Assembly (NCBI RefSeq): GCF_004421105.1
Contig: NZ_CP038033.1
Location: 62,001 to 126,000, forward strand
Reading direction: 5' to 3'
Source: Nitrosococcus wardiae
Lineage (GTDB): Bacteria; Pseudomonadota; Gammaproteobacteria; Nitrosococcales; Nitrosococcaceae
Length of the DNA: 64,000 bases
The translations under genes and the position numbers were made by a program. The notes beneath the pieces are model-generated. The model made no database searches. It was not told the origin of the DNA and was given only the letters and a program-made list of their open reading frames with translations. This document shows, piece by piece, positions 39,620 through 53,214 of the stretch. Numbering within the stretch: position 1 is the first letter of the stretch; each line of letters starts with the position of its first letter.

Positions 39620-40234
39620 TTACCCTAATAATTCATTTAGCAAGGGCGTTAACTGCTCCTCTTGCCGGAGACGCAACAAACGCCGACCTCGAATAATGGC
39701 CATCAGATCTTCGAGTGCCGTCTCAAACACATCATTGACCACTAGATAGTCAAATTCATTATAGTGAGAAATCTCTGTCCGGGCGGCCCGCATCCGTCGA
39801 GCAATCACGGTTTCCCCATCTTGTCCCCGCAGGCGCAGTCGATGCTCTAGAGTCTCCCGGGAAGGGGGGAGAATAAAGATGCTGACACAATCGGGAAAGC
39901 ATGCTTGTACTTGGCGTCTCCCCTGCCAATCGATCTCCAGGATAACATCCATACCCTGCTCAAGAAGCCCGGTCACCTTCTCCCAAGCCGTACCATAACG
40001 GTGATCAAACACCTGGGCATGCTCCAAAAAGGCACCCGCCTGCTGCATGGTCTCAAAGGTGGCGTCATCAATGAAATAATAATCCACCCCATCCCGCTCC
40101 CCTGGGCGGGGCGGACGGGTCGTATGGGAGACTGAAAGGCAAACGCCCGCCATAGAATCCACCAGCGCTTTGACCAGGCTGGTTTTCCCAGCGCCGGAAG
40201 GGGCCGCAACAACGAATAGGCTACCAGGCATCAT
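39620..40234 (-). CDS. gmk: Guanylate kinase
   Basis: 204 residues. P-loop APSGAGKTSLV, then SHTTRPPRPGERDGVDYYF (GMP binding) and ILEIDWQGRRQV. It phosphorylates GMP to GDP. In many bacteria yicC lies directly upstream; here the 12-kb restriction island (40335-52326) stands between them. Confidence 0.96.
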   Translation of the reverse strand: MMPGSLFVVAAPSGAGKTSLVKALVDSMAGVCLSVSHTTRPPRPGERDGVDYYFIDDATFETMQQAGAFLEHAQVFDHRYGTAWEKVTGLLEQGMDVILEIDWQGRRQVQACFPDCVSIFILPPSRETLEHRLRLRGQDGETVIARRMRAARTEISHYNEFDYLVVNDVFETALEDLMAIIRGRRLLRLRQEEQLTPLLNELLG

Positions 40235-40334: not shown

Positions 40335-43300
40335 CTACCCCAGCAAATGCCTTAGGCTCTGTTGCAGAGATGATTTGAACGCCGGATCGCTGGCCAACAA
40401 GCGGTACAAATCCAGATCCATTTTCCGGCGCTCGAGCATGACTTCCTCGAAGATCTTCTCGAAGGCCAAGGTGCGGTTGTCCGCGTCCTGATTGTGCTTG
40501 TATTTGGCTTCAAAGTCCGGGTGGGCCTGGATGCTCTTGATGATACTGAGGAACTTCACCCGCTGTTCTTCCGGCGTGGCTTCCCACCCATGAAACCAGC
40601 GTTCGTTAAAGCTTTGGATAATCTCATCAAGCGGATCCTGTTCTTCGCTACCTCCGTGAACGCCCCGAGGATTGGGATTGGTGGGGTCAACTTCCGTCTC
40701 GGACTCATCCAGCCCAATGGCCTGATTCAGCTTGACCCGTTCCAGGCCATAGGAAGACAGATCGACGGAGTCCAGCAGGACATTGATTTCATCGGCATCC
40801 TTGCTTTTAACCACCAGCTTGGGAATCAGGAACTTCAGAAACCAGAACAGCTTCTCCCAGGCGACCACTTCATAGGGCATGATGGACGCCATCTGGCCAT
40901 AAATCTTCACGAATTGCTTGGCCTTGATTTTGAAGTCCGCCTTGTCCTCGTCCTCCAGGCCCAATTCCTGGTTGAAACGCGCCGCGGCGGTATCCATCAG
41001 GGGGCTCAATTGCTGGGCATCGGCGTTGTCAAAGTACAAGCCGACAAACGCTTCCACCTCGTGCCATTCGTAGACCCCCACCTCCCCCAAGGCATCCTTG
41101 AGTTCGTGCAGCACATTGACATCCGTTGCCTGTGACAGGCTGGTGGCGGTGTAGAAGGGATCAAAGGCGGCCTTGATGTCCTCCACCGTGTTGAAGAAAT
41201 CCAGCACGAACAGGTCTTCCGTCTTCTTACTCCACTGGGGAGCCGCCCGGTTGAGGCGGGACAGGGCCTGCACGGCCAGGACCCCTTGCAGTTTTTTATC
41301 CACATACATGGCGGTCAGCTTGGGCTGATCGAAGCCGGTGAGGTACTTGTTGGCCACCACCAGCAGGCGGTACTCGTCCTTATCGAACCTCTCCCGGGTG
41401 TCCGCTTCAGGAAAGCCATTCATCTCGGCCTCGGTGTATTCAATGCCGTCTACTTCTTTAGCGCCGGAGAAAGCCACCAGCGCCTTGAAAGGGCTGCCCC
41501 GGTCCCGAAGGATGCGCCCAATCGCCTGGTGATAGCGGATGGCGGTTTCGATATTCTGGGTAACCACCATACCCTTGGCCCTGCCCCTAAGCTTTTTGGC
41601 ATTCACCACCTGGGGGATAAAGTGCTCCAAAATGATCTCGGCCTTGGCGTTGATGGTCTGGGGATTGCGCTCCACATAGGCCCGCAGCTTCTTCTGGGCC
41701 TTGGCGGTATCGAACAGGGGATTGTCCTCGATGGATTTTTGGATCTCGTAATAGCTTTGGTAGGTGGTGTAGTTGGCCAGCACATCGAGAATAAAGCCCT
41801 CCTCGATGGCCTGCTTCATGGAGTAGAGATGAAACGGCTTGAAGCTGCCGTCGGGCTGTTTTTGGCCGAATTTCTCCAGGGTACTGTTCTTGGGGGTGGC
41901 GGTAAACGCAAAGTAGGAGGCATTGCCCCGCATCTTGCGCGAGCGCATGGCGTTCAGAATCTTGTCCTGAGGGTCGCTCTGATCGTCTTCGTCATCGGCA
42001 TCCCTGCCCATGGCCTGATTCATCTTGCCGTGGGCACTGCCATCCTGGGAGCCGTGGGCCTCATCAATGATGACGGCGAAGCGCTTGTCGCTCATGTCCT
42101 CGATGCCATCAATGATAAACGGGAATTTCTGGAGGGTGGTGATAATGATCTTCTTGCCCTGCTCCAGGGCCTGTTTAAGGTCCGAGGAGCGGAGGGCCGG
42201 GGCGATGATGTTCTTCACCTCCGAGAACGCGCGGATGTTCTCCCGCAACTGCTTGTCCAGCAAGCGCCGGTCGGTGACCACAATCACCGAATCGAACAGG
42301 GGCGCGTCCAATCCCTTGGCTCCCCGGACATCGACGGACAGCGGGTAGGTCTCGATTAGTTGGTAGGCAGCCCAGGTGATGGAGTGGGATTTCCCGGAAC
42401 CGGCGGAATGCTGGATCAGGTAAGTCTGCCCCACCCCCTGTTCGCTGGCGTGGGCCACCAACTTGCGGACTACATCCAACTGGTGATAGCGGGGAAAAAA
42501 CAGGGTGCGCTTGGCCAGGGAGGTTTTGCTGCTGCCGTCGAGGCGCACAAAATGCTGGATGATGTTGGCGATGCTCTCCTTGCTGAACACCTCCTGCCAC
42601 AGATAGGCGCTTTTATGGCCGCCGGGATTGGGCGGATTGCCGGCGCCGAAGTGATGCCCCTTATTGAAGGGCAAAAAGAAAGTGCTTTTCCCGGCCAGCT
42701 TGGTGGTCATATACACTTCGTCAGTATCCACCGCCATATGCACCAGACAGCGCCCGAATTGCAGCAAGGGCTGGGTGATGTCCCGCTCCAAGCGATATTG
42801 CCTCTGGCCGTGGTAGCAGGCGGTTTGGCCCGTCCAGGGGTTTTTCAGCTCCAGGGTGGCGAAGGGCAGGCCGTTGATGAACAACACCAGGTCGATTTCT
42901 TCCAGCGTACGGGTCAGGGAATAGCGCACCTGACGGGTGCTGCTGAAGAGGTTGGCGTTAAAATTCTCTTTGACCTTATCCGAGCTGCTGGCCAGGGGCG
43001 GAGGGTACAGCAGGTGGAAATGGGCGTCATCAATGCTCAGGCCCCGTTTGAGCAGGTGCAGCAGCCCGTGCTTTTTCACCAGCCGATCGAATCGCTCCAG
43101 GATCTTGCTCCGCCAGTCAGGGTGGTGCTTTTTGAGCTTGTCCAGTTCCTCAGCCTGGGCGCTCTCCAGAAACTGCCAGAAGAATCGGGTATCCACCCCA
43201 TAGCGGGCATTGAAATCCGCAGCCTGCCCCAACTTGTAACCCTGGTTCGGGCTGAAGGGCACTTCCCTTATCCCCTCCCTGATGGCCTTTTGTTCTTCCA

Positions 43301-43367
43301 GACAGGTGCCGGTCAGATATTTCTCGATGGCAGCCTCTAGGGCCTGTTCATTGGTTTGGCTGACCAC
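40335..43367 (-). CDS. hsdR: Type I restriction enzyme subunit R
   Basis: About 1010 residues. A GTG at 43367 has a GAAGGG site at good spacing; a TTG just before it is an alternative. The nuclease domain is at about 158-176 (EIDLVLFINGLP, then ATLELKNP), a PD-(D/E)xK site. Two RecA-like helicase domains follow, with HSAGSGKSHSI, IIDEAHGSQ and FTATPK, and a C-terminal helical domain that binds HsdM. It translocates and cuts DNA that lacks methylation. It stands 5 kb from hsdS because the DUF262 module lies between. Confidence 0.95.
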   Translation of the reverse strand: MVSQTNEQALEAAIEKYLTGTCLEEQKAIREGIREVPFSPNQGYKLGQAADFNARYGVDTRFFWQFLESAQAEELDKLKKHHPDWRSKILERFDRLVKKHGLLHLLKRGLSIDDAHFHLLYPPPLASSSDKVKENFNANLFSSTRQVRYSLTRTLEEIDLVLFINGLPFATLELKNPWTGQTACYHGQRQYRLERDITQPLLQFGRCLVHMAVDTDEVYMTTKLAGKSTFFLPFNKGHHFGAGNPPNPGGHKSAYLWQEVFSKESIANIIQHFVRLDGSSKTSLAKRTLFFPRYHQLDVVRKLVAHASEQGVGQTYLIQHSAGSGKSHSITWAAYQLIETYPLSVDVRGAKGLDAPLFDSVIVVTDRRLLDKQLRENIRAFSEVKNIIAPALRSSDLKQALEQGKKIIITTLQKFPFIIDGIEDMSDKRFAVIIDEAHGSQDGSAHGKMNQAMGRDADDEDDQSDPQDKILNAMRSRKMRGNASYFAFTATPKNSTLEKFGQKQPDGSFKPFHLYSMKQAIEEGFILDVLANYTTYQSYYEIQKSIEDNPLFDTAKAQKKLRAYVERNPQTINAKAEIILEHFIPQVVNAKKLRGRAKGMVVTQNIETAIRYHQAIGRILRDRGSPFKALVAFSGAKEVDGIEYTEAEMNGFPEADTRERFDKDEYRLLVVANKYLTGFDQPKLTAMYVDKKLQGVLAVQALSRLNRAAPQWSKKTEDLFVLDFFNTVEDIKAAFDPFYTATSLSQATDVNVLHELKDALGEVGVYEWHEVEAFVGLYFDNADAQQLSPLMDTAAARFNQELGLEDEDKADFKIKAKQFVKIYGQMASIMPYEVVAWEKLFWFLKFLIPKLVVKSKDADEINVLLDSVDLSSYGLERVKLNQAIGLDESETEVDPTNPNPRGVHGGSEEQDPLDEIIQSFNERWFHGWEATPEEQRVKFLSIIKSIQAHPDFEAKYKHNQDADNRTLAFEKIFEEVMLERRKMDLDLYRLLASDPAFKSSLQQSLRHLLG

Positions 43368-43370
43368 CAA

Positions 43371-45329
43371 TTACCCTTCACCTATAGAGCGATAATGTGA
43401 GCTGAGCAACTCAATCATTTCATCTTCGTGCCGTTTGATAAGTTCCGACAACCATTCATCATCCCCTTTTAACTCAAATATTCGCTTGAGCTTAAGTGAG
43501 TCATAGACCCCTTTACTTTCAAAGTCGGCCTTTTTGACGTTAACCGGCTTGTTGCTGTAAGACGAGTTCTGTCCCGGATTCAGCAAGACAAGATTACCAA
43601 AGCCATCCAGATAGTTTCTCTCCATCTGTTTGCCATACTTTTCATTTTGGGGATGAACATGCTCGATCGAGTTTCGAGAGGCGATGTGGTATTTGCGCAT
43701 CTTTTCATCAGCGCTTTTATCCGCATGTTTCCACAGCAGGTATTCTAGCTTCTGAAACCAATAGTGCTCATAACCTGTTCCCTTTGGCTTTCGAAGGCAT
43801 TTACATATGCCATTTATTGATTGTAATTCGGGCAGTTCACCAGCCAAAAGCATGAAACTGGCCTCTTTTTGGGTGGTGTCAGCCAGGGTTCGGGATAATG
43901 GGTTATCAATGCTTTCAAGGGTATCAAGTACCTCGGATTCGGTTGTGGGAACATCGTTGAGCAATCGTCCCAGGAAAGGCGTCAACCAATACTGTGCGCT
44001 ACGCTCGCCCGTGAAGTAACGTACACTCTGTAGTTGCACCAGCGCTGAAGGCTGCTCTTTCTGACGACGATTTAAATATCCTTTCCCATCGTTGCTAGGA
44101 TAAACCTCGGTCAGATGAAGTTGCTCTTTCTCTTCGTCGTCTCGCTCAATCCATTTCATCACCCAGCGGTCGAATTGATAACGCACCTGCCAGAGACACT
44201 CAATGAATGCCTTTACCTCTTCCTCGCCGGCCTGCTTTAGTTCCTTGAAACTTTCTATCAGGCGGTCGCTGTGCAGACGCACCTCGATATCCGGTTTACC
44301 GGAAAAATTTCGGTAGATGCGGTAAGCGTGCATCAACAGCAGCGGAAAACCGATGATCGAACGGCAATACACAGTCTCCTCATCCAACTCCGGTTTGTCA
44401 TTGCCGTTGCCGCCACTATTTTGCCCTGACGGTTCGTGTATTTGTTCTGCCAGCTTACTGATGGAAAGCACTCCCCGGTTATCATCCCCCTCCGGAGAAT
44501 ATTCCGCAGGGAGCTGGAAGCGCCCAGGATCGTACTGTTTCAAATCATCGGGCTGAATGTTCGCCCAATCGGTTCCCTTGAACAGCTGCCGGACATTACG
44601 CTCGAAGTAATTTTCCATGTGCTCGCAAGCCTGCCAGATCGCCTCATAGCGTGGTTTGTCGGTCTTAACCTGCTTGAGCAGCAGCGATTTGAGGATGTCG
44701 GACTGTTCCAGCTGTATGCCCCGAGTATTCATGGTGGCAAACAGGCGGTTGAGATCCATGCCACCCGGCATGATGTTATTGACCCATTGCACTTTGTTGT
44801 CAATGTAGTCTGCTATCTTTTCCCCATGCTGGCGGCTGTCCAGTTGGTCTAGTCGCTGCTGCAGTGCCTTTAATGCGCCATGCAGGCGGGTCAGATAGGG
44901 ATTATGCTCCACCGCTTCATTGCCGGGGGATGGGTAATCTTCCAGCTTGGCCCAATGACCAAGCAACGTCTGAACCTGATGGCGTATGGAAAAGGTCAGC
45001 CTCGGCTTTTTATCGTGGATCGCCAACTGCGTCAGTGGGATTTCTTTTTTCCGGGATCGAAATGCTATGGCCATCAACATCAGTGTCGTCATGCGCTGCT
45101 GGCCATCAATGAGCTCGTAGCTGCCCTCCTGGAGTCGCGCGGTCAATACGGTGCCGATGTAATAATTCGGCTCGCCGGTTTTCTGGGCCTGCGCAATGTC
45201 GTCGAACAGTTTGAGCACATCCTCATCAGGCCACACATAGGGCCGCTGATAGCTGGGAATCACGAAAGCGATGTTGCCTTTTCGGATATCAGCCGGCGTC
45301 TGCACCTGGCTCAGCACGCGATCATGCAT
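43371..45329 (-). CDS. DUF262/DUF1524 protein, GmrSD-like (ParB-type NTPase plus HNH nuclease)
   Basis: 652 residues. The N-terminal DUF262 domain has FVIPSYQRPYVW (about 22-33), ELIDGQQRMTT (about 72-82) and FATMNTRGIQLEQSDILK. The C-terminus has the DUF1524 His-Asn-His signature NSIEHVHPQN...GNLVLLNPGQNSSYSN (parts quoted). This is the architecture of GmrSD-type type IV restriction enzymes and of SspE, which act on modified phage DNA. Here it sits inside a type I operon, so its trigger may differ. The ATG at 45329 has GGAGG and overlaps the next upstream gene by 8 bp. Confidence 0.88.
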   Translation of the reverse strand: MHDRVLSQVQTPADIRKGNIAFVIPSYQRPYVWPDEDVLKLFDDIAQAQKTGEPNYYIGTVLTARLQEGSYELIDGQQRMTTLMLMAIAFRSRKKEIPLTQLAIHDKKPRLTFSIRHQVQTLLGHWAKLEDYPSPGNEAVEHNPYLTRLHGALKALQQRLDQLDSRQHGEKIADYIDNKVQWVNNIMPGGMDLNRLFATMNTRGIQLEQSDILKSLLLKQVKTDKPRYEAIWQACEHMENYFERNVRQLFKGTDWANIQPDDLKQYDPGRFQLPAEYSPEGDDNRGVLSISKLAEQIHEPSGQNSGGNGNDKPELDEETVYCRSIIGFPLLLMHAYRIYRNFSGKPDIEVRLHSDRLIESFKELKQAGEEEVKAFIECLWQVRYQFDRWVMKWIERDDEEKEQLHLTEVYPSNDGKGYLNRRQKEQPSALVQLQSVRYFTGERSAQYWLTPFLGRLLNDVPTTESEVLDTLESIDNPLSRTLADTTQKEASFMLLAGELPELQSINGICKCLRKPKGTGYEHYWFQKLEYLLWKHADKSADEKMRKYHIASRNSIEHVHPQNEKYGKQMERNYLDGFGNLVLLNPGQNSSYSNKPVNVKKADFESKGVYDSLKLKRIFELKGDDEWLSELIKRHEDEMIELLSSHYRSIGEG

Positions 45330-46743
45330 TTGAAACCTCCTGCCCCTTGCACCGACGTTTAATCGCTTTCTGAAGGGCTAAATCATAGTCTTTAGCCAAT
45401 TGCTCCTCGGACAGATCCAATCCAAGATAAGCTTTTACCGCCAGCACGAAACGTTTTTTTACTCCGTTATCCTGTGGCTCCAAATTCTCGGGACTCACCT
45501 TAACCTCGAACCGACGCAAGCGAGCCATGCATTGCTCCTGGGTATAGTTCATCAAAATCCAGTCGAACACCGGATTATCGCGCACGAAAGCGGCAACGGA
45601 ACTTTCGCGCACTGCCTTTTGATTGCTGACCCGGGGGGAATAGACCACACGAAATAGCCTTAAGGCGGCCTCAAAGAATCGTTCCAGCCCGAAGTGACTG
45701 GCATAAAGCAGCAGCGTGCTGTCATATAGCTTCTTGAGATAGCTGCAACCGTCCAACGTCTCGATAAGGTTGCGGTAGAAATCGTGAAATGTCCCAAGGT
45801 TAGGCTCGGTTCGGTCGGTGAGAAGCCGTTGTCGAAGTCGCTCGAAGTATTCTAGGTAATGAATGGTATTGATGCCCGCGTTAAGCGGCTGCCGCATGGC
45901 ATAACCGGTGGCATGGGATGTCTGTAATACTTTCCCAGCTTCGGTGCGGGTCACTGAGGTGCACTGGTAAGCAACGTCGGTGATCTCTTCGCCGGTTCGC
46001 TCGGCCAGTTCGGCCACCACCACTTCACGCACCTGTTGGGGCTGCCGGTGCGAAGGCAAGGGATTGAAGTCTAGTGCATTCCAGCACCGGGCTTTTAGCA
46101 CGATGTCCACCAGCGGATTGAGGTCCCCCAATGCCTCCCACATCCGGGCGTAATCGTCCTGGCGGTTGCGCGGCGTGGCCCGCAGGTGATGGGCTTTGAT
46201 GATATCCGGACCGCTCAGGCGTACCCCGCCGGTATTCTGGGTTTCGAAAAAGCGGTAGGCATCATCTTCACTGCGAGTGACCACCAGGGTGATGTTGATG
46301 CGCGTCAGATCGATGGCATGATAAACGGCCTGATGCTCCTCCTGACGCAACAACCTCAGATTCTCCCGGATCTGCTGCTGGCTGAGGGGAGAGTCATACT
46401 CCAAATCGGGATAACTGCCCAGCTTTTTAATACATGCCAACAGCGCCATGGTAGTCAGCCGCTGCTGGCCATCAATAATATTTAGCCTATGGCCACGCTC
46501 CTGTTGATGCAAAATGATGCTGCCCAGATAGAACAGATGATTTTGTTTTCTAGCTTTGTCATCTTCCTTGAAATAACAACACAAATCCTTCCGCAACCGA
46601 TACACCTGCTCTTTACCCCAGCGGTAAGGCCGCTGGTATTCCGGCAGGTGCAGTTGGCCTTCTATCATGGAATCATCGCTGGCTTTTATGGGACGACCGG
46701 CAAACAACTCGGCAAGCGTACAGCTGGCGACAACAACCGTCAT
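45322..46743 (-). CDS. DUF262 protein without nuclease domain
   Basis: 473 residues. DUF262 motifs: HLPEYQRPYRWGKEQ (about 32-46), LNIIDGQQRLTT (about 87-98) and FFETQNTGGVRLSGPDIIK. The C-terminal half is helical and has no HNH or other nuclease motif I can see. The DUF262 fold binds and hydrolyses nucleotides in GmrS-type proteins. The overlap with the 652-residue gene and the similarity of the two N-halves suggest a two-part complex, with this one as NTPase-only partner or sensor. Confidence 0.8.
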   Translation of the reverse strand: MTVVVASCTLAELFAGRPIKASDDSMIEGQLHLPEYQRPYRWGKEQVYRLRKDLCCYFKEDDKARKQNHLFYLGSIILHQQERGHRLNIIDGQQRLTTMALLACIKKLGSYPDLEYDSPLSQQQIRENLRLLRQEEHQAVYHAIDLTRINITLVVTRSEDDAYRFFETQNTGGVRLSGPDIIKAHHLRATPRNRQDDYARMWEALGDLNPLVDIVLKARCWNALDFNPLPSHRQPQQVREVVVAELAERTGEEITDVAYQCTSVTRTEAGKVLQTSHATGYAMRQPLNAGINTIHYLEYFERLRQRLLTDRTEPNLGTFHDFYRNLIETLDGCSYLKKLYDSTLLLYASHFGLERFFEAALRLFRVVYSPRVSNQKAVRESSVAAFVRDNPVFDWILMNYTQEQCMARLRRFEVKVSPENLEPQDNGVKKRFVLAVKAYLGLDLSEEQLAKDYDLALQKAIKRRCKGQEVSNA

Positions 46744-46826
46744 GCCACCACCTTGACGTTACCGGTACTGACATGACTGGCGTGAAAGACAGGCCTTAGT
46801 GGCTGTTCACAGACTTGGCTGACCAT
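46740..46826 (-). CDS. 28-residue mini-ORF coupled to the DUF262 gene
   Basis: ATG at 46826 with an AAGGG site, encoding MVSQVCEQPLRPVF followed by HASHVSTGNVKVVA. Its stop overlaps the DUF262 start (ATGA), so it could be a leader peptide for translational coupling. The rest of the 308-bp gap (46827-47051) has short direct repeats (CAAATGA) but no other gene. No homologue is known to me. Confidence 0.4.
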   Translation of the reverse strand: MVSQVCEQPLRPVFHASHVSTGNVKVVA

Positions 46827-47051
46827 GGTTAACCCTTTTTGTTTATGGTTTTTTGTGTTGGCCTGACAGGGCCTGGAATCAACAATCCATCAAGAAAATT
46901 CCCAGTCCTACCAGTTTATTTCAGGAGCATGCCTACCATGCCTACGATCAAATGAGAACATGGTTCTGACATATTGAATTTACGTGATTTTTATCAGGAT
47001 CTACCGCTTTGGGCAGGTTCGGAGTCAAATGACCGTCAAATGAAGCTGACC

Positions 47052-48521
47052 TCAGGCCCAATAGGGCACATAGCGATAGACCTTGCGGTTCGCCTTTGGA
47101 TCGTAAAGACGGATAAGGCCGGCATCGATCGTTTGCTTGATGATGCGGCTAGCCATGGCGCTGTTCCCCTCATCAATGCGGAAACGCTCTCTAAGCGATG
47201 TATTGTTCATCGGCTCCCGGTTGACGTACTTGAGGCAACAGTGCTGATAGCAGGCTCGGATACGGTCTTCCATATCCATATCCTTGTATTCCTTGTGGGC
47301 AAAGAGGACCACCCGGGTATGCTGTTCTGTCTGCTCAAAGATCGGCGCAGGCAATTGATAGACCTCAATCTGGGCGACAACTTTGTCTATCCCACTACCC
47401 CGCTCCTCACAAATACCGATCCGGCGCATAAAGGACGCCAGGGCTTCGTTGCGGCTGCGAGGCGGGCTATCCAAGAAGCGCCGGGTATCCACCAGCGGCA
47501 CGCCGGGATTGGTGATTTCCAGACGGCTGTCGAACAACTCAATCATCGGTCCGGTGCCGGTGAGGTTGAAATCCTGGTGAATAATGGCGTTAGCCACCAG
47601 CTCCCGCAGGGCCAGTTCCGGGTATATGGGCACTTCTTCCCGGAATGCCTTACCGATCTCCTCATTGGCCGGCAGCAGGGTTTTCAGGTAGTCAATCAGG
47701 CCCTCAAAGCCCACCGCGTAGCCTTTAGCGCCGGTCAGCTCCCGGACGGTTTGTAGCTTGTTGTTGCCTTTGTAGAGGATCAAGCGCACCGCCTTGCGGG
47801 CTAGGGTCTGGAAGTCCTGCAAGCGCTTGGCGAACAGTACGGCACCCAGATGGGTAATATGCCAGTGTCCGCTGTCGCTGCGTTGGATCAGCTGATCCGC
47901 TTCCAGCGCGGCGAGAATACTGTCACGCCCCTCGGGCAGAGGTTGGTCCGTCAGGTCAAAATACGCCGGGTAGTCCAGCAGCTTGAGCACTTTGTCGGCT
48001 TCAAGGTTTTCCGCCGCATGCTGTCGCTCAAAGGGCACCCGGTCGAATACCCGCCAAAGTCCCCGCTCCTTTTCAGGGAACTCGCGGAGTTTCTTCTTGT
48101 AGGAGCCGACCCGAATATACTCCGTGCCATCAAATTGGACTGGCGTATGGCTGGCCGCTTGGATCTCGAGAATCACCACCGGTTGTTCATTGGCTGCACT
48201 AAACTCGAAAAAACGGAAATGAATCTTGGGGACCGTCTTCTGCAACAACCAGCTTTCCAATTCCTGCTGTTTATGCCGGGCTTTGGAGGGCTTAAAGCGC
48301 GTGCCGACAACCTCATGGCCCTCATCTTCCACACCCCACACCAAATAGGCGGACTGCTTGCCCAGTAGTGCCGATGAGTTGGCCAGGGCGGAGATGTATT
48401 CGCCAATCCTAGGCGGGTCGTCATTATCCCGCTTGAACTCCACCCATTCGGTTTCCTTAGGCAGGCTGCACAGCTCCCTCAGCAGGGATTGCAGGCGGGC
48501 CGGGTCACGCCCGACCGTCAT
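47052..48521 (-). CDS. AlbA_2-domain protein with GHKL-type ATPase region
   Basis: 489 residues. The N-terminal AlbA_2 (Schlafen-like) domain is marked by ETEWVEFKRDND and YISALANSSALLG. A HATPase_c_4-like region follows (ALRELVANAIIHQDF, then ERGSGIDKVV), and the end has a winged-helix look. Such proteins are common passengers of type I restriction operons and are often called transcriptional regulators or putative helicases; neither role is proven. The start overlaps the hsdS stop by one base (TGATG), so it is tightly coupled. Confidence 0.85.
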   Translation of the reverse strand: MTVGRDPARLQSLLRELCSLPKETEWVEFKRDNDDPPRIGEYISALANSSALLGKQSAYLVWGVEDEGHEVVGTRFKPSKARHKQQELESWLLQKTVPKIHFRFFEFSAANEQPVVILEIQAASHTPVQFDGTEYIRVGSYKKKLREFPEKERGLWRVFDRVPFERQHAAENLEADKVLKLLDYPAYFDLTDQPLPEGRDSILAALEADQLIQRSDSGHWHITHLGAVLFAKRLQDFQTLARKAVRLILYKGNNKLQTVRELTGAKGYAVGFEGLIDYLKTLLPANEEIGKAFREEVPIYPELALRELVANAIIHQDFNLTGTGPMIELFDSRLEITNPGVPLVDTRRFLDSPPRSRNEALASFMRRIGICEERGSGIDKVVAQIEVYQLPAPIFEQTEQHTRVVLFAHKEYKDMDMEDRIRACYQHCCLKYVNREPMNNTSLRERFRIDEGNSAMASRIIKQTIDAGLIRLYDPKANRKVYRYVPYWA

Positions 48522-49846
48522 CAGGCGACCTCCTCTTCCCTTGTTTCCTTGCAGGCTGGTTCTTCCACGCCGGGCACCTTGATCTTGCCGGTGACGGCGC
48601 TGTTGATGAGGATGGCTTTGTATTCCTTGAGTTCGGCGATTTGTTGTTGCAGCAGGGTGATGCCTTTGTCCAGTTTGGCGGATTCGGTTTCGATGTGGCT
48701 TACAATAGCAATTTGTTCTTCTTTTGGAGGGACAGCTACCTTTATATCCCCAAAATTTTCCGTATAAAGGCGCATAAAGCCAGAAGATCCGGTACCTAAC
48801 CCTTTTGAGTTAAGCCGAAACTGCGTACCAAGTAGTGGCAGCTTGAACAACCGAAGGAAAAACTCCGGATGTGCTTTCGCGTCTATTTCAAATACTGCGT
48901 AATCAGGACTAACCAAACCATGCTTCGCAACCAATCCAAAAATACCGATGGCAGCTCGCATTCTATTCATTACCATTTGACCAGGGCGAACTATCTTATA
49001 ATCCACCAAGTTTTCATCTGATATGAACTTATCGGAAACTTCATCATGAGGAATAAGACCTTGCTCCATCCTCAAGGAGAACAAAACCTCTTTCCCAGTT
49101 TTCGTCCGCTCATTTACTTCTTTGAAAAGATATTTGAGCTTCATTGCACCCCAATGGGCCGGAATCTCACCAATCCACTCCACCCCGGAGTCCCGCATGG
49201 GCGCATCCGAGTTGAGGCCACGGGTGACAGCATTCTGGATCAGGATCTGCTTGCGCTCTTTGAGGAGGGCGATTTGCCGTTCCTTGATGCTGGCTGCCTG
49301 GTCAATCTGGGCGGTTTTGCGGTCGAGGAAAGTGGCAATGGCGGTTTGTTCAGCCATAGACGGCATAAGAAAAGGGATTTCTTTCATACGCGTCTTGGAC
49401 AAGTCCCATTGACCGATCCGAACACCGTCAGAAGCACTTGCGAAAAAAGAAATATAGAGTTTGCTTCGAATTGCAAGGTGGAAGAAACGTGGATTCACAT
49501 GTCTTAGAAAGCTGAATACATAGTAGGCAGGACTGACTATACCAATATGCTCTGATACACCATAAGAACCTTGCCATGCCTTCATTTTATTTATTCCAAA
49601 TTGACCTTCTTCGACTAATTTGTAGTTACTGAGGTCGTCTGGAATAAAGTTGTGATTCTCATCTTTATTTTCCTTATTCCTCAGGATTACACCTTGTTCC
49701 CGAGTGATGGATAACAATGGCAACTCTGGACAGTTTTTGATAGAGACCGGCTTCAATATAGAACCTAATGTAACTACATCCCAATGCGCCGGCACTTCGC
49801 CAATCCATTCCATCCCGGAGTCTTTATAAGCCTGATACTTGGGCAT
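48521..49846 (-). CDS. hsdS: Type I restriction enzyme specificity subunit S
   Basis: 441 residues from the ATG at 49846, 13 bp after hsdM. Two target-recognition domains are set out by the repeated blocks MEWIGEVPAHW / VEWIGEIPAHW and EQTAIATFLDRKTAQID / EQIAIVSHIETESAKLD. These repeats space the two halves of the DNA target. The recognition domains are more AT-rich than the conserved parts, as is usual in variable specificity genes. Intact. Confidence 0.94.
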   Translation of the reverse strand: MPKYQAYKDSGMEWIGEVPAHWDVVTLGSILKPVSIKNCPELPLLSITREQGVILRNKENKDENHNFIPDDLSNYKLVEEGQFGINKMKAWQGSYGVSEHIGIVSPAYYVFSFLRHVNPRFFHLAIRSKLYISFFASASDGVRIGQWDLSKTRMKEIPFLMPSMAEQTAIATFLDRKTAQIDQAASIKERQIALLKERKQILIQNAVTRGLNSDAPMRDSGVEWIGEIPAHWGAMKLKYLFKEVNERTKTGKEVLFSLRMEQGLIPHDEVSDKFISDENLVDYKIVRPGQMVMNRMRAAIGIFGLVAKHGLVSPDYAVFEIDAKAHPEFFLRLFKLPLLGTQFRLNSKGLGTGSSGFMRLYTENFGDIKVAVPPKEEQIAIVSHIETESAKLDKGITLLQQQIAELKEYKAILINSAVTGKIKVPGVEEPACKETREEEVA

Positions 49847-49859
49847 GGCGTTTAGCAAC

Positions 49860-52259
49860 TCACTCACCCTCCACCCCCGAAACCTCTTCCACATCAACGC
49901 CCAGAATCTCGGCAATCAACCCCTCGGCCTGTTGCTCCAGAGCGATAATCTCCCGAGCCACTTCTTCCATACTCCGTAGGGGCTGGTGGCGGTAGAAATA
50001 TTTATTAAAGCTAATCTCGTAACCGATTTTCACCGAATCCATATTGATCCAAGCCTCAGGTACGTGGGGTTTAACTTCGGCTTTGAAGTACTGGTGAATA
50101 TCATTCTTCAGGGGGATGGTTTCGCTATCGCGCAGCTCCGAACTGCTTTCATAGGTGAGGTATTCGCCGGGCTTTTCGGTTGCGTAGTAGCCAAAATCGG
50201 CTAGCTCGCTTTCCTCGCAGCCCAGCCGTTGCAGCAAAGTCCGTAGTTGATCCTGGCTGAACTTCTCCACCTTCTTGATGACTTTCTCAGCGTTTTCGTC
50301 ATACCCGCTAACGGCGCTGAGCAACTGGTTCTTATCGCTGACTCCCAGTTTGACGCCGGTTTCCTTGGCCAGGGCCTTCAGCGCCTTGTCTACTCGCGTT
50401 TTGAAGCGGTTAAAATCGTTGAACTCGTCGGTGCCGATAGCTGCCATCAAATGCTTGGCTGTCTGCACTAGGGTGCGGTGCTTCCGCCAGGTCTCCAAGT
50501 TCAGCAGTTTCTTGCGCTGCTTGGCGTTAAGGTTCAGCGCCTGTTCTTCGCACCAGGCGAGAATGGCCTTTTCGTGCTCGGCCAGGGCGCCTTTTTCATA
50601 AACCCTGTCCCCCCATTGTGCATAGATCCAGGCCATGGGCTCCCCCAGGGCCTTGTCGAAGCGCAGGGTTTCGATGCGTTCGGTACTGAATTGGGCCTTG
50701 CGCCGGTCCGGGCGCTCGATGGTGACCTTGTGGTAGCCGAAATCACCATTGTCGAACACCTGGGCGGCGATGCCTTCGGCCCCCGCCGGGCGGTCGATGC
50801 TGGCCAGCTCCAGATAGGTTTGAGTGATTTCGCGGATATGCTCCGGGGCAAACTCGCAGTTCTTGTTGCCCAGGTTCTTGCGCAACTTGCGGTAGAGCTG
50901 GCTGGCGTCGATCAACTGCACCTTGCCCTGGCGGTGCGGCGGCTTGTGGTTGCTGAGCAGCCAAATATAGGTGGTGATGCCGGTATTGTAGAACAGGTTG
51001 TTGGGCAACTGGATGATGGCTTCCAGCAAATCGTTCTCGATGATATGGCGGCGGATGCTGCTCTCGCCGCTGCCGGCGTCGCCGGTGAACAGGCTGGAGC
51101 CGTTGTGGACCGAGGCAATGCGGGAGCCCAGGCCTCCTGCCTGGGGGGCTTTCATCTTGCTAATCATATCCATCAGGAACAGCAACTGACCGTCGCTGGA
51201 GCGGGGAGCGGCATCGACGGTCTCCACATGGCCCCAATAATCCTTGAGCTGCACCTTGAAGCGGGGGTCGATGACCTCGCCGCCGTCCTTGATATATTTC
51301 TGCTCGCCGGCCCAGCTCTTGCCGTAGGGGGGATTGGAGAGCATGAAGTCGAACCGGTTGCCGGCGAATTCGTCCGTGGACAAAGTGGAACCCACCCGGA
51401 TGTTGGCCGGGTCGTTGCCCTTGATCATCATGTCGGACTTGCAGATGGCGTAGGTCTCGTCGTTGATCTCCTTGCCGTAGAGATACACATCGCCGCTGGC
51501 GCGGATGGCGCCCTCTTCGTCCTTGATGAAGTTTTGGGACTCGGTGAGCATGCCGCCGCTGCCGCAGGCCGGGTCGTAGATGGTCATCACCGGCGGCAGC
51601 TTGTCCTTGACCGGATCGAAAACCAGGTGAGTCATCAGCTCAATCACCTCGCGGGGGGTGAAGTGCTCCCCGGCCTCTTCGTTGTTCTCTTCGTTGAACC
51701 TGCGGATCAGCTCCTCGAACACATAGCCCATCCCCAGGTTGCTGAGGGCGGGCAGGCGGTTGCCCTCCGGGTCTTGGACTTCCTCGTGGGTGAGGTTGAT
51801 GTAAGGGGAAGTAAACTTCTCCAGCACATCCAGCAGCACGTCCTTGGCCGCCATATGGCGCACCTGGGCCTTGAGGTTGAACTTGCCGATGATCTCCTTG
51901 ACGTTGCCGCTGTAACCGCTGAGGTACTCTTCCACATTGGCCAGCAAAATCTGCTGGTTGTTGGTGGCGGTTTGGTAGAGCTGTTTCAGGGTCCATTTAC
52001 TGGCGTTGTAGAACACATAGCCCGAGGCCGCCTGCAAGGCGCTGTCCTCCAACTCGGTCAGTTTCATGTCGTTGCGCTGGAACCGGACTTCCTCCAGCAC
52101 GGCGGCTTTGGTGGGTTCAAGCAGGGCATCCAGGCGGCGCAAAACCACCATGGGCAGGATCACATCGCGGTACTTGCCCCGAACATAGACATCGCGCAGA
52201 CAATCGTCGGCAATGGACCAGATAAAGGACACCAGCTTGTTATGGAATGCGTGGTTCAT
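49860..52259 (-). CDS. hsdM: Type I restriction enzyme methylase subunit M
   Basis: 799 residues. An HsdM N-terminal helical domain is followed by the methylase core: DPACGSGG (229-236, SAM binding) and NPPYG (309-313, catalytic, N6-adenine). The C-terminal third is longer than in many HsdM proteins and ends in an acidic tail. With HsdS it methylates adenine in the target; with HsdR it restricts. It is the first gene of the island and its upstream region is the TTAAGGG repeat. Confidence 0.95.
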   Translation of the reverse strand: MNHAFHNKLVSFIWSIADDCLRDVYVRGKYRDVILPMVVLRRLDALLEPTKAAVLEEVRFQRNDMKLTELEDSALQAASGYVFYNASKWTLKQLYQTATNNQQILLANVEEYLSGYSGNVKEIIGKFNLKAQVRHMAAKDVLLDVLEKFTSPYINLTHEEVQDPEGNRLPALSNLGMGYVFEELIRRFNEENNEEAGEHFTPREVIELMTHLVFDPVKDKLPPVMTIYDPACGSGGMLTESQNFIKDEEGAIRASGDVYLYGKEINDETYAICKSDMMIKGNDPANIRVGSTLSTDEFAGNRFDFMLSNPPYGKSWAGEQKYIKDGGEVIDPRFKVQLKDYWGHVETVDAAPRSSDGQLLFLMDMISKMKAPQAGGLGSRIASVHNGSSLFTGDAGSGESSIRRHIIENDLLEAIIQLPNNLFYNTGITTYIWLLSNHKPPHRQGKVQLIDASQLYRKLRKNLGNKNCEFAPEHIREITQTYLELASIDRPAGAEGIAAQVFDNGDFGYHKVTIERPDRRKAQFSTERIETLRFDKALGEPMAWIYAQWGDRVYEKGALAEHEKAILAWCEEQALNLNAKQRKKLLNLETWRKHRTLVQTAKHLMAAIGTDEFNDFNRFKTRVDKALKALAKETGVKLGVSDKNQLLSAVSGYDENAEKVIKKVEKFSQDQLRTLLQRLGCEESELADFGYYATEKPGEYLTYESSSELRDSETIPLKNDIHQYFKAEVKPHVPEAWINMDSVKIGYEISFNKYFYRHQPLRSMEEVAREIIALEQQAEGLIAEILGVDVEEVSGVEGE

Positions 52260-52267
52260 TGAAAGCT

Positions 52268-52324
52268 TTAAGGGTTAAGGGTTAAGGGTTAAGGGATTAA
52301 ATTTTTGTTTTCCTTAACCCTTAA
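52268..52324. repeat. Tandem TTAAGGG heptamer with inverted copy at the island edge
   Basis: Four exact copies of TTAAGGG run from 52268 to 52295. After an AT-rich spacer, CCTTAACCCTTAA (52312-52324) is the inverted partner. Together they can fold into a long hairpin. It lies between yicC and hsdM, 8 bp from the hsdM start. Confidence 0.9.
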
Positions 52325-52347
52325 CACTAAGCGGAAGCGGGGGGAAA

Positions 52348-53214
52348 TTATTCGATGTTTTGAACTTGCTCCCGGACTTGTTCGATGAGCACTTTAAGCT
52401 CCACCGCATCTTGGCTAATGGCCACATCCACGGACTTGGCGGCCAAGGTATTGGCCTCTCGATTCAGCTCCTGCATTAAAAAATCCAAACGCCGGCCCAC
52501 GGGTTCCTTACGCTGAAACACTTGCCGGACTTCAGCCATATGGGCTTGCAGCCGATCCAGTTCCTCCGTGATATCGCTTCTTTGGGCAAAAAGTACTAAC
52601 TCTTGCTCCAGCCGCCCAGGCTCCAGTTCTGTTTGAACTGTCTCCAATCGAGCGTGCAAGCGTTCTCGAAAACGGCTCATGGCTTGGGGCAACTGGGCGC
52701 GGACCCGCTCCACAATTGCCTCAATTTCGCCACAGCGCTGGGTCATAAATACGACTAAACGGGCCCCCTCCGCAGCCCGAGTCGCTAACATCTCATTTAA
52801 AGCGTCCTCCAAGGCCGATAAGGCCTCCGTTTTCAGCCGTTCCACATCAAGCGCTGGGCTCTTCAGCACTCCTGGCCAACGCAGCACTTCCAAGCTATTG
52901 AGGGGAGCTGGGTGAGGGGCAAGGGCATCGATCTCTTCACAGAGGTGGACTAATTGGCGGGTTAATTGCTCATCAAGAGAAAACTTTACCGCTGCCGCTG
53001 AAGGAGAAAAATAACGCAAAGCGCAATCTACTTTTCCCCGCCTAAGCCGATTGCTGACTAATGCCCGGACCTGAGATTCAATAAAACGCAATTCCTCGGG
53101 TAAACGCACCGAAATATCCAAATAACGGTGGTTAACCGAGCGAAGTTCCCAAGTGAAAGTCCCCGCATCCCCCTCTCTCCCTTGACGCGCAAACGCTGTC
53201 ATGCTGTAAATCAC
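52348..53214 (-). CDS. yicC: YicC-family endoribonuclease
   Basis: 288 residues, starting with GTG at 53214 (MIYSMTAFARQ). The N-terminal block and the C-terminal block LDFLMQELNREANTLAAKS are strongly conserved in the family. YicC proteins are RNases that take part in small-RNA turnover and stationary-phase survival. It is followed on the same strand by the defence island, not by gmk. Confidence 0.92.
   Translation of the reverse strand: MIYSMTAFARQGREGDAGTFTWELRSVNHRYLDISVRLPEELRFIESQVRALVSNRLRRGKVDCALRYFSPSAAAVKFSLDEQLTRQLVHLCEEIDALAPHPAPLNSLEVLRWPGVLKSPALDVERLKTEALSALEDALNEMLATRAAEGARLVVFMTQRCGEIEAIVERVRAQLPQAMSRFRERLHARLETVQTELEPGRLEQELVLFAQRSDITEELDRLQAHMAEVRQVFQRKEPVGRRLDFLMQELNREANTLAAKSVDVAISQDAVELKVLIEQVREQVQNIE

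What the first reader, a model, noticed from the sequence alone, without database searches (positions are those of the whole stretch)
40335..52326. Type I restriction operon with an AlbA_2/GHKL protein and a DUF262 pair embedded between hsdS and hsdR, placed between yicC and gmk
The M and S genes are split from R by 5 kb holding an AlbA_2 ATPase-like protein, a mini-ORF and two DUF262 genes. All are on one strand with overlapping or closely spaced starts, so they look like one transcriptional unit. It would combine restriction of unmethylated DNA (type I) with GmrSD-like restriction of modified DNA, covering both phage strategies. The site is a core gene boundary (yicC/gmk), a likely hot spot for defence exchange.
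Basis: partly seen in the sequence, partly recalled or inferred. Interest (0 to 1): 0.75.

Follow-up and report, generated by a model that had tools for sequence, protein, structure and literature searches.

The report
Swappable defence cassette inside restriction operon
A bacterial DNA-restriction operon carries a second phage-defence pair and a Schlafen-like protein, predicted to cut RNA, between its recognition and cutting genes; a sister species has a different cassette in the same slot, and the Schlafen gene travels with its own matching DNA-binding site.

Summary
In detail: yicC–hsdM–hsdS–AlbA_2/GHKL–DUF262–DUF262/HNH–hsdR–gmk, all on the minus strand. The type I plus DUF262-pair part is already known: it is the TgvAB arrangement of Vibrio cholerae (PMC11411939, 2024).

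What is new here: (1) The sister species G001 has the same hsdM and hsdR (97%) at the same yicC–gmk site, but other hsdS recognition domains and a different AlbA_2 gene with no DUF262 pair. Homology stops at 48545 and resumes at 43366. (2) The mini-ORF is a probable relic of the hsdR 5' end, marking where the pair was inserted. (3) The AlbA_2 protein is Schlafen–GHKL–winged-helix, with both catalytic Glu invariant; its family sits in type I, type III and Hma/BREX-like operons across phyla. (4) The gene carries an 11-bp direct-repeat element (TTGAY-N6-TTGAY) just after its stop codon: 70/90 members downstream, 4/88 upstream. The base before TTGAY coevolves with winged-helix residue 454 (purine = Lys 12/12, pyrimidine 0/57; 9/9 independent changes), so the protein probably binds this element.

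Best reading: layered restriction with a self-operator-bearing Schlafen nuclease/regulator in a cargo slot. RNase activity, DNA binding and regulation are untested.

The parts
52348..53214 (-). yicC (flank)
   Evidence: Pfam YicC-like_N/C
49860..52259 (-). hsdM, type I methyltransferase
   Evidence: Pfam N6_Mtase, HsdM_N; DPACGSG and NPPY motifs intact; 97% identical to sister species
48521..49915 (-). hsdS, specificity subunit; recognition domains differ from the sister species
   Evidence: Pfam Methylase_S, PADLOC Specificity_I E=8.7e-142; 46% identity to L109 with conserved blocks only
43367..48544 (-). exchangeable cargo slot between the hsdS 3' end and the hsdR start (replaced in sister species)
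   Evidence: blastn homology to L109 stops at 48545 and resumes at 43366
47052..48521 (-). Schlafen (AlbA_2)-GHKL ATPase-winged-helix protein, 489 aa
   Evidence: Pfam; E23/E28 invariant and D66 present; model resembles SLFN11/13/14 and the SAMD9 tRNase domain, HK ATPase, wHTH
47024..47039 (-). 11-bp direct-repeat pair TTGACGGTCATTTGAC, candidate binding site of the Schlafen protein
   Evidence: covariation with wHTH residue 454
46947..46951 (-). single half-site (TTTGATCG), 88 bp from the first pair
46878..46893 (-). second direct-repeat pair TTGATGGATTGTTGAT, resembling the type of relatives L029/L030/L104
46740..46826 (-). mini-ORF MVSQVCEQPLRP..., probable relic of the hsdR 5' end (MVSQTNEQAL); ATGA overlap with the DUF262A gene
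45322..46743 (-). DUF262A (TgvA-like): GmrSD_N + DUF7834
   Evidence: YQRP, DGQQR, F..xN motifs
43371..45329 (-). DUF262B (TgvB-like): GmrSD_N + GmrSD_C (DUF1524, His-Me nuclease)
   Evidence: YQRP, DGQQR, FATMN, EHVHP, GNL motifs
40335..43370 (-). hsdR, start TTG/GTG directly after the DUF262B stop
   Evidence: Pfam HSDR_N, SWI2_SNF2; TIGR00348 hit is below its cut-off; GSGKS, DEAH, ELK motifs
39620..40234 (-). gmk (flank)
   Evidence: Pfam Guanylate_kin

Best explanation
This is a layered restriction locus built on a conserved type I (hsdM-hsdS-hsdR) backbone. The slot between hsdS and hsdR holds cargo that is exchanged as a block. The present cargo has two parts. (i) A TgvAB-like pair, expected to cut phage DNA with modified cytosines. 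(ii) A Schlafen-GHKL-winged-helix protein, which probably binds 11-bp direct repeats placed just 3' of its own gene, in front of the next genes; by this it probably regulates itself and/or the downstream nuclease genes. Its Schlafen domain probably acts as an RNase, a second line of defence when restriction fails. Shown computationally: gene content, cassette swap against the sister species, relic of hsdR, recurrence, the repeat element, coevolution of element and winged helix. Inferred: RNase activity, DNA binding in vivo, what the ATPase senses, the direction of regulation, modification dependence of the DUF262 pair.
For: Domains and motifs. Precedent for type I + TgvAB with measured anti-phage activity: PMC11411939. 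Cassette swap: sister G001 has hsdM 96.6%, hsdR 96.7%, hsdS 46%, a different AlbA_2 (28.5%) and no DUF262 pair; homology borders 48545/43366. Marinobacter L027 has M-S-Slfn(85%)-R without the pair; E. coli pLAO4 has M-S-other gene-TgvA-TgvB-R with hsdM 74% and hsdR 75%. Relic: hsdR start-like ATGGTCAGCCAA upstream of DUF262A (expected 0.02 per window; 0-3 of 2000 gap shuffles reach the score for three hsdR queries and 11 of 2000 for the fourth). Schlafen: two catalytic Glu invariant in 30/30, Asp66 D in 22 and N in 8; E23/E28/D66 spacing 5 and 38 equals SLFN13 E205/E210/D248; Foldseek finds SLFN14/13/11; SAMD9 tRNase domain Z 9.1, SLFN14 Z 8.5. A 2026 survey names Schlafen-minimal HK-wHTH proteins as backup effectors of BREX-type systems. 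Element: 70/90 downstream vs 4/88 upstream, only spacing 6 enriched; period 11 in 54 loci, other periods at most 1; present in 21/21 loci where hsdR follows. Coevolution: residue 454 Lys in 12/12 purine and 0/57 pyrimidine sites, 9 independent changes all matched, p=0.0039, on a tree built without the wHTH. New loci: 18/30 downstream, 0/30 upstream; the one A site has K454, the one pure G site has R454.
Against: The element also follows the gene in 16/21 cases where the next gene is convergent, so a simple operator for downstream nuclease genes does not explain all loci. D66 is Asn in 8/30 family members. The holdout coevolution test is small, has R instead of K in one purine site and one locus (L162) with mixed T and G pairs. 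No sigma-70 promoter or terminator was found in the gap by consensus scan. In the window the second pair is mixed (C then G) and 146 bp from the first, so the element there is partly degenerate.
Confidence: 0.65

Rival explanations
1. The Schlafen-like protein is only a transcriptional autoregulator (a C-protein analogue) that delays hsdR and DUF262 expression; its AlbA_2 domain binds nucleic acid but does not cut.
For: Coevolution of winged helix and repeat element; element in front of hsdR in 21/21 cases; D66N in 8/30.
Against: Both catalytic Glu are invariant in 30 diverse members with SLFN13 spacing; nearest folds of residues 2-162 include the SAMD9 tRNase domain and SLFN14; solo genes with no downstream sense gene keep the element.
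Confidence: 0.3
2. Ordinary defence-island clustering: three independent systems sharing a locus with no functional link; the order is accidental.
For: The family also occurs alone or in other systems; DUF262 pairs occur outside type I loci, as in PMC11411939 and in this genome at 3.85 Mb.
Against: Block exchange exactly between hsdS and hsdR with hsdM/hsdR constant; the same slot used in unrelated type I backbones (L032, L034); of 79 loci classified, 37 have at least two hsd genes next to the Schlafen gene.
Confidence: 0.2
3. The repeat element is a recombination or attachment site that moves the Schlafen gene, not a regulatory site.
For: It sits a short, rather constant distance after the stop codon in many contexts, and the window and L162 carry two sequence types that could be scars.
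Against: No recombinase is linked; the binding-site-like covariation with the gene's own winged helix and the ~11-bp phasing of pair distances fit a protein-binding site.
Confidence: 0.1

Closest known systems
TgvAB in the type I RM operon of V. cholerae VPI-2 (PMC11411939)
   Same: hsdM-hsdS-DUF262-DUF262/DUF1524-hsdR order; same domains and motifs; found in several genera
   Different: No Schlafen gene or repeat element is described there; the window has an extra cargo gene, and the DUF262 proteins were not compared with VC1766/VC1767 by sequence
Schlafen-minimal histidine kinase-wHTH backup RNases of BREX/BREX-related systems (PMC12839542)
   Same: Same three-domain architecture, embedded in a DNA-modification defence operon
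   Different: Here in type I (and type III) operons; self-encoded 11-bp repeat element and its coevolution with the wHTH are not mentioned in the passages read
PrrC anticodon nuclease in the EcoprrI type I locus (PMC3710099, PMC12707154)
   Same: Candidate translation-blocking RNase with an ATPase, encoded inside a type I operon as second line of defence
   Different: PrrC is HEPN + ABC ATPase; this is Schlafen + GHKL + winged helix; trigger unknown
DarTG2 between hsdS and hsdR with the RptR repressor in EPEC (PMC12255303)
   Same: Foreign defence cargo in the same hsdS-hsdR slot, with a repeat-binding regulator of the operon
   Different: RptR is a separate 9-kDa repressor at the operon start; here the candidate regulator is fused to the candidate effector and sits in the middle
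TrlG of Photorhabdus (PMC7554251)
   Same: AlbA_2 + HATPase_c_4 architecture, dominant growth-arrest effect
   Different: Not in a type I operon in Photorhabdus; homology to the present subfamily not tested

Membership tests
Type I restriction-modification | hsdM, hsdS, hsdR with intact catalytic motifs | tested here: met
   (DPACGSG, NPPY; GSGKS, DEAH, ELK); the NCBIfam models for hsdM and hsdR hit below their cut-offs
TgvAB / two-protein GmrSD | DUF262 in both proteins, DUF1524 in B | tested here: met
   GmrSD_N in both, GmrSD_C in B
TgvAB / two-protein GmrSD | QR, DGQQR, FxxxN motifs and His-Me H..N..N/H | tested here: met
   YQRP, DGQQR in both, FETQN / FATMN, EHVHP, GNL
TgvAB / two-protein GmrSD | between hsdS and hsdR of a type I operon | tested here: met
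   with an extra gene in front
TgvAB / two-protein GmrSD | sequence orthology to VC1767/VC1766 | not tested
   V. cholerae pathogenicity-island sequence was not fetched
TgvAB / two-protein GmrSD | restriction of modified-cytosine DNA | not testable with these tools
   needs phage assays
Schlafen (SLFN) RNase | AlbA_2/Schlafen fold | tested here: met
   Pfam SLFN_AlbA_2 E=3.6e-19; Foldseek SLFN14/13/11 E 2e-5 to 1e-4; VIA Z 8.5-9.1
Schlafen (SLFN) RNase | E, E, D catalytic triad | tested here: met
   E23, E28, D66 in the window protein with SLFN13 spacing 5/38; across 30 members E23 and E28 invariant, position 66 D 22 / N 8
Schlafen (SLFN) RNase | RNA cleavage | not testable with these tools
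   needs biochemistry
PrrC/RloC anticodon nucleases | HEPN RNase domain with ABC ATPase | tested here: not met
   Pfam shows SLFN_AlbA_2 and HATPase_c_4 only; works-like claim only
BREX/BREX-related Schlafen-mHK-wHTH effectors | Schlafen + minimal histidine kinase + wHTH architecture | tested here: met
   Schlafen 2-162, HK ATPase 241-411, wHTH 413-489; membership of the same clade not tested

The most novel reading that the evidence does not exclude
A widespread Schlafen-GHKL-winged-helix family carries its own cognate 11-bp direct-repeat binding site immediately 3' of its gene, so effector and operator move together as one module that plugs into type I, type III and BREX/Hma-like operons across phyla and puts the downstream restriction genes under the control of a candidate RNase sensor.
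Probability: 0.55. Interest if true: 0.78.

Novelty: new variant of a known kind. Interest (0 to 1): 0.62.

Why it matters
Schlafen proteins are antiviral factors in mammals, and prokaryotic ones have recently been proposed as abortive-infection RNases, but what controls them is open. A DNA site that coevolves with the protein and lies in front of the restriction subunit gives a direct, testable link between a candidate RNase and the expression of the nucleases it backs up. The sister-species comparison also catches exchange of cargo between hsdS and hsdR, which may explain how embedded defence genes spread.

Tried and rejected
RNA element: Rfam gave only one chance-level hit, on the other strand and inside the DUF262A gene; the near-11-bp phasing of pair distances and the covariation with a DNA-binding domain argue for DNA, not RNA. 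Sigma-70 promoter/terminator in the gap: none by consensus scan. Reading the mini-ORF as a functional small gene: rejected as first choice because it matches the hsdR start. Upstream operator: 4/88, three of them Psychrobacter loci where the gene overlaps hsdS and the element sits before it. The alternative AlbA_2 family of the sister species: 11-bp repeats of other sequence in L130-L132 and imperfect ones in L109/L129, absent in the more distant members, so not general. Repeats in remote viral-contig relatives: absent in most. DUF262A in 369 class genomes at E<=1e-25 gave only 2 genomes besides the own one, so the close TgvA type is rare. The organism's name was not determined.

Full report
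Observation. The AlbA_2 gene overlaps hsdS by one base and the two DUF262 genes overlap by 8 bp; the only gap is 308 bp between the AlbA_2 gene and the first DUF262 gene. Catalytic motifs of HsdM, HsdR and both DUF262 proteins are intact.

Known part. A type I operon interrupted by a DUF262 / DUF262-DUF1524 pair is the TgvAB arrangement of V. cholerae VPI-2, which restricts Tevenvirinae with modified cytosines; the five-gene order was found in 79 of 41,142 genomes (PMC11411939). An E. coli plasmid, pLAO4, has hsdM 74%, hsdR 75% and both DUF262 proteins 49% identical to the window, with an unrelated 187-aa gene in the place of AlbA_2.

Cassette swap. In the same-genus species G001 (yicC 93%, gmk 95%) the yicC-gmk interval holds the same operon, hsdM 96.6% and hsdR 96.7%, but hsdS shares only conserved blocks (46%), and between hsdS and hsdR there is a single, different AlbA_2/HATPase_c_4 gene (28.5%) and no DUF262 pair. 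DNA homology ends at 48545 and resumes at 43366, four bases into hsdR. Marinobacter L027 has the closest Schlafen gene (85%) in M-S-Slfn-R without the pair. The mini-ORF begins ATGGTCAGCCAA...GAACAG.CACTA-AGGCC, like the hsdR start of L030, L109 and the window itself; 0-3 of 2000 shuffles of the gap reach the alignment score for three hsdR queries and 11 of 2000 for the fourth. The simplest reading is that the DUF262 pair entered an M-S-Slfn-R operon at the hsdR start and left a short copy behind.

The site. In 38 relatives yicC and gmk lie within 200 bp in 10, 0.8-1.3 kb apart in 7, 3.9-27 kb apart in 13 (14 with the own genome), far apart in G002 and G003, and on different contigs or without yicC in the rest. 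G022 has in this interval another type I operon with a YhcG nuclease, a DUF262 gene, an AAA/DUF3696 gene and a close Schlafen homologue; G019 has a TOTE-type primase-helicase gene; the proteins sampled from two other species (G015, G023) are transport, chemotaxis or cyclic-di-GMP type. It is an insertion hot spot, not specific to defence.

The AlbA_2 protein. Pfam gives SLFN_AlbA_2 and HATPase_c_4. In 30 members from many phyla E23, E28 and K30 are invariant, position 66 is D in 22 and N in 8. The spacing E23-E28-D66 (5, 38) equals that of E205-E210-D248 of rat SLFN13, where E205A and E210A abolish cleavage (PMC5862951). The AlphaFold model (mean pLDDT 86) matches the uncharacterised bacterial protein 3lmm, then SLFN14, SLFN13 and SLFN11; by VIA-align, residues 2-162 match the SAMD9 tRNase domain (Z 9.1, 144 residues, 4.0 A) and SLFN14 (Z 8.5), 241-411 histidine-kinase ATPase domains (Z about 9.5), 413-489 winged helices (Z 9.4). 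These Z values are moderate; sequence and fold together make the assignment. A 2026 survey describes Schlafen-minimal histidine kinase-wHTH proteins as backup suicidal effectors in BREX and related systems (PMC12839542).

Recurrence. A scan of named genomes gave 577 relatives; of 79 of the best 80 loci classified by neighbours, 37 have two or more hsd genes beside the Schlafen gene, 9 one, 5 Hma/BREX-like genes, 28 other or unassigned; two of the unassigned have type III-like neighbours. The exact six-gene order occurs in Pseudoalteromonas L032 and Paraglaciecola L034, which resemble each other (hsdM and hsdR 87%) but share only 28-33% of hsdM/hsdR with the window; L031, L073, L088, L089 and L117 combine the Schlafen gene and DUF262 gene(s) in other orders.

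The element. Just after the Schlafen stop codon lie tandem TTGAY repeats with an exact 11-bp period: 70 of 90 loci within 300 bp downstream, 4 of 88 upstream, 0-2 in shuffles, and only spacing 6 is enriched. Exact 8-mers repeated at period 11 occur in 54 loci downstream and 3 upstream; no other period exceeds 1 downstream. Often two pairs occur; of 37 first-to-second distances most are 87-90 bp, with others at 66, 77-78, 99 and 110-111 bp and a few at 97, 101 and 104 bp, which suggests helical phasing. The element is present in 21/21 loci where hsdR follows, 2/2 where a DUF262 gene follows, 7/11 where hsdS/hsdM follows and 16/21 where the next gene is convergent. In the window the pairs are 47024-47039 and 46878-46893 with a half-site at 46947-46951.

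Coevolution. The base before TTGAY agrees within a pair in 98 of 115 cases (about 34% expected). Over all columns of the protein it is most informative about positions 479, 454 and 481, all in the winged helix; six of the top seven columns are there. Residue 454, at the start of the predicted recognition helix 454-466, is Lys in 12/12 proteins with a purine and 0/57 with a pyrimidine; the next best column of the protein reaches phi 0.54. On a tree built from residues 1-410 only, the purine state changes 9 times and Lys454 changes with it 9 of 9 times (sign test p=0.0039); T versus C follows a basic residue at 479 in about 6.4 of 9 pairs, 0.1 against. The column was picked from the same data; the check on new loci is small: 18/30 have the element downstream, 0/30 upstream; the one locus with A has K454, the one with only G sites has R454, one (L162) mixes T and G pairs, no pyrimidine-only locus has K454.

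Mechanism. I commit to this model: the Schlafen protein binds the repeats beyond its own gene and controls itself and/or the genes behind, while its Schlafen domain is a conditional RNase, comparable in role to PrrC in EcoprrI. The DUF262 pair cuts modified phage DNA, type I cuts unmodified DNA. Binding is strongly suggested by covariation; RNase activity and regulation are inference. The open problem is the element after solo genes with convergent neighbours.

Noticed in passing
own genome G000:C1:3853188-3856456 (L005:10054-13456): A second DUF262 pair not linked to type I genes, next to transposase-like genes; the second gene is split over two overlapping frames, so probably broken. G002 has a related pair.
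   Followed up: partly
window 52260-52330: AAGGGTTAAGG...CCTTAACCCTTAACCCTTAACCC, an inverted/tandem repeat between yicC and hsdM, partly kept in the sister species (L109).
   Followed up: no
L018 (Providencia rettgeri plasmid) and L117 (G022): Nearly identical Schlafen genes and downstream regions in a Providencia NDM plasmid and in a relative of this genome's order: recent transfer; next to the plasmid copy hsdR is truncated.
   Followed up: partly
L027:9934-10307: The Schlafen-hsdR spacer of Marinobacter carries both TTGAY-type repeats and TTAGACATTTC repeats like those after the other Schlafen subfamily (L109, L129, L130): possible scar of an earlier cargo.
   Followed up: partly
L109:1302-2426: In the sister species an HTH-ImmA/IrrE (Peptidase_M78) gene lies between yicC and hsdM on the opposite strand.
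   Followed up: no
centre of the element, e.g. L085, L059: A weakly conserved box aaatCAnnnngTTa lies between the two repeat pairs; function unknown.
   Followed up: partly
L022:9420-9983: The E. coli plasmid operon carries a 187-aa gene without Pfam match in the slot between hsdS and the DUF262 pair (VIIENKLDD...: possibly PD-(D/E)xK).
   Followed up: no
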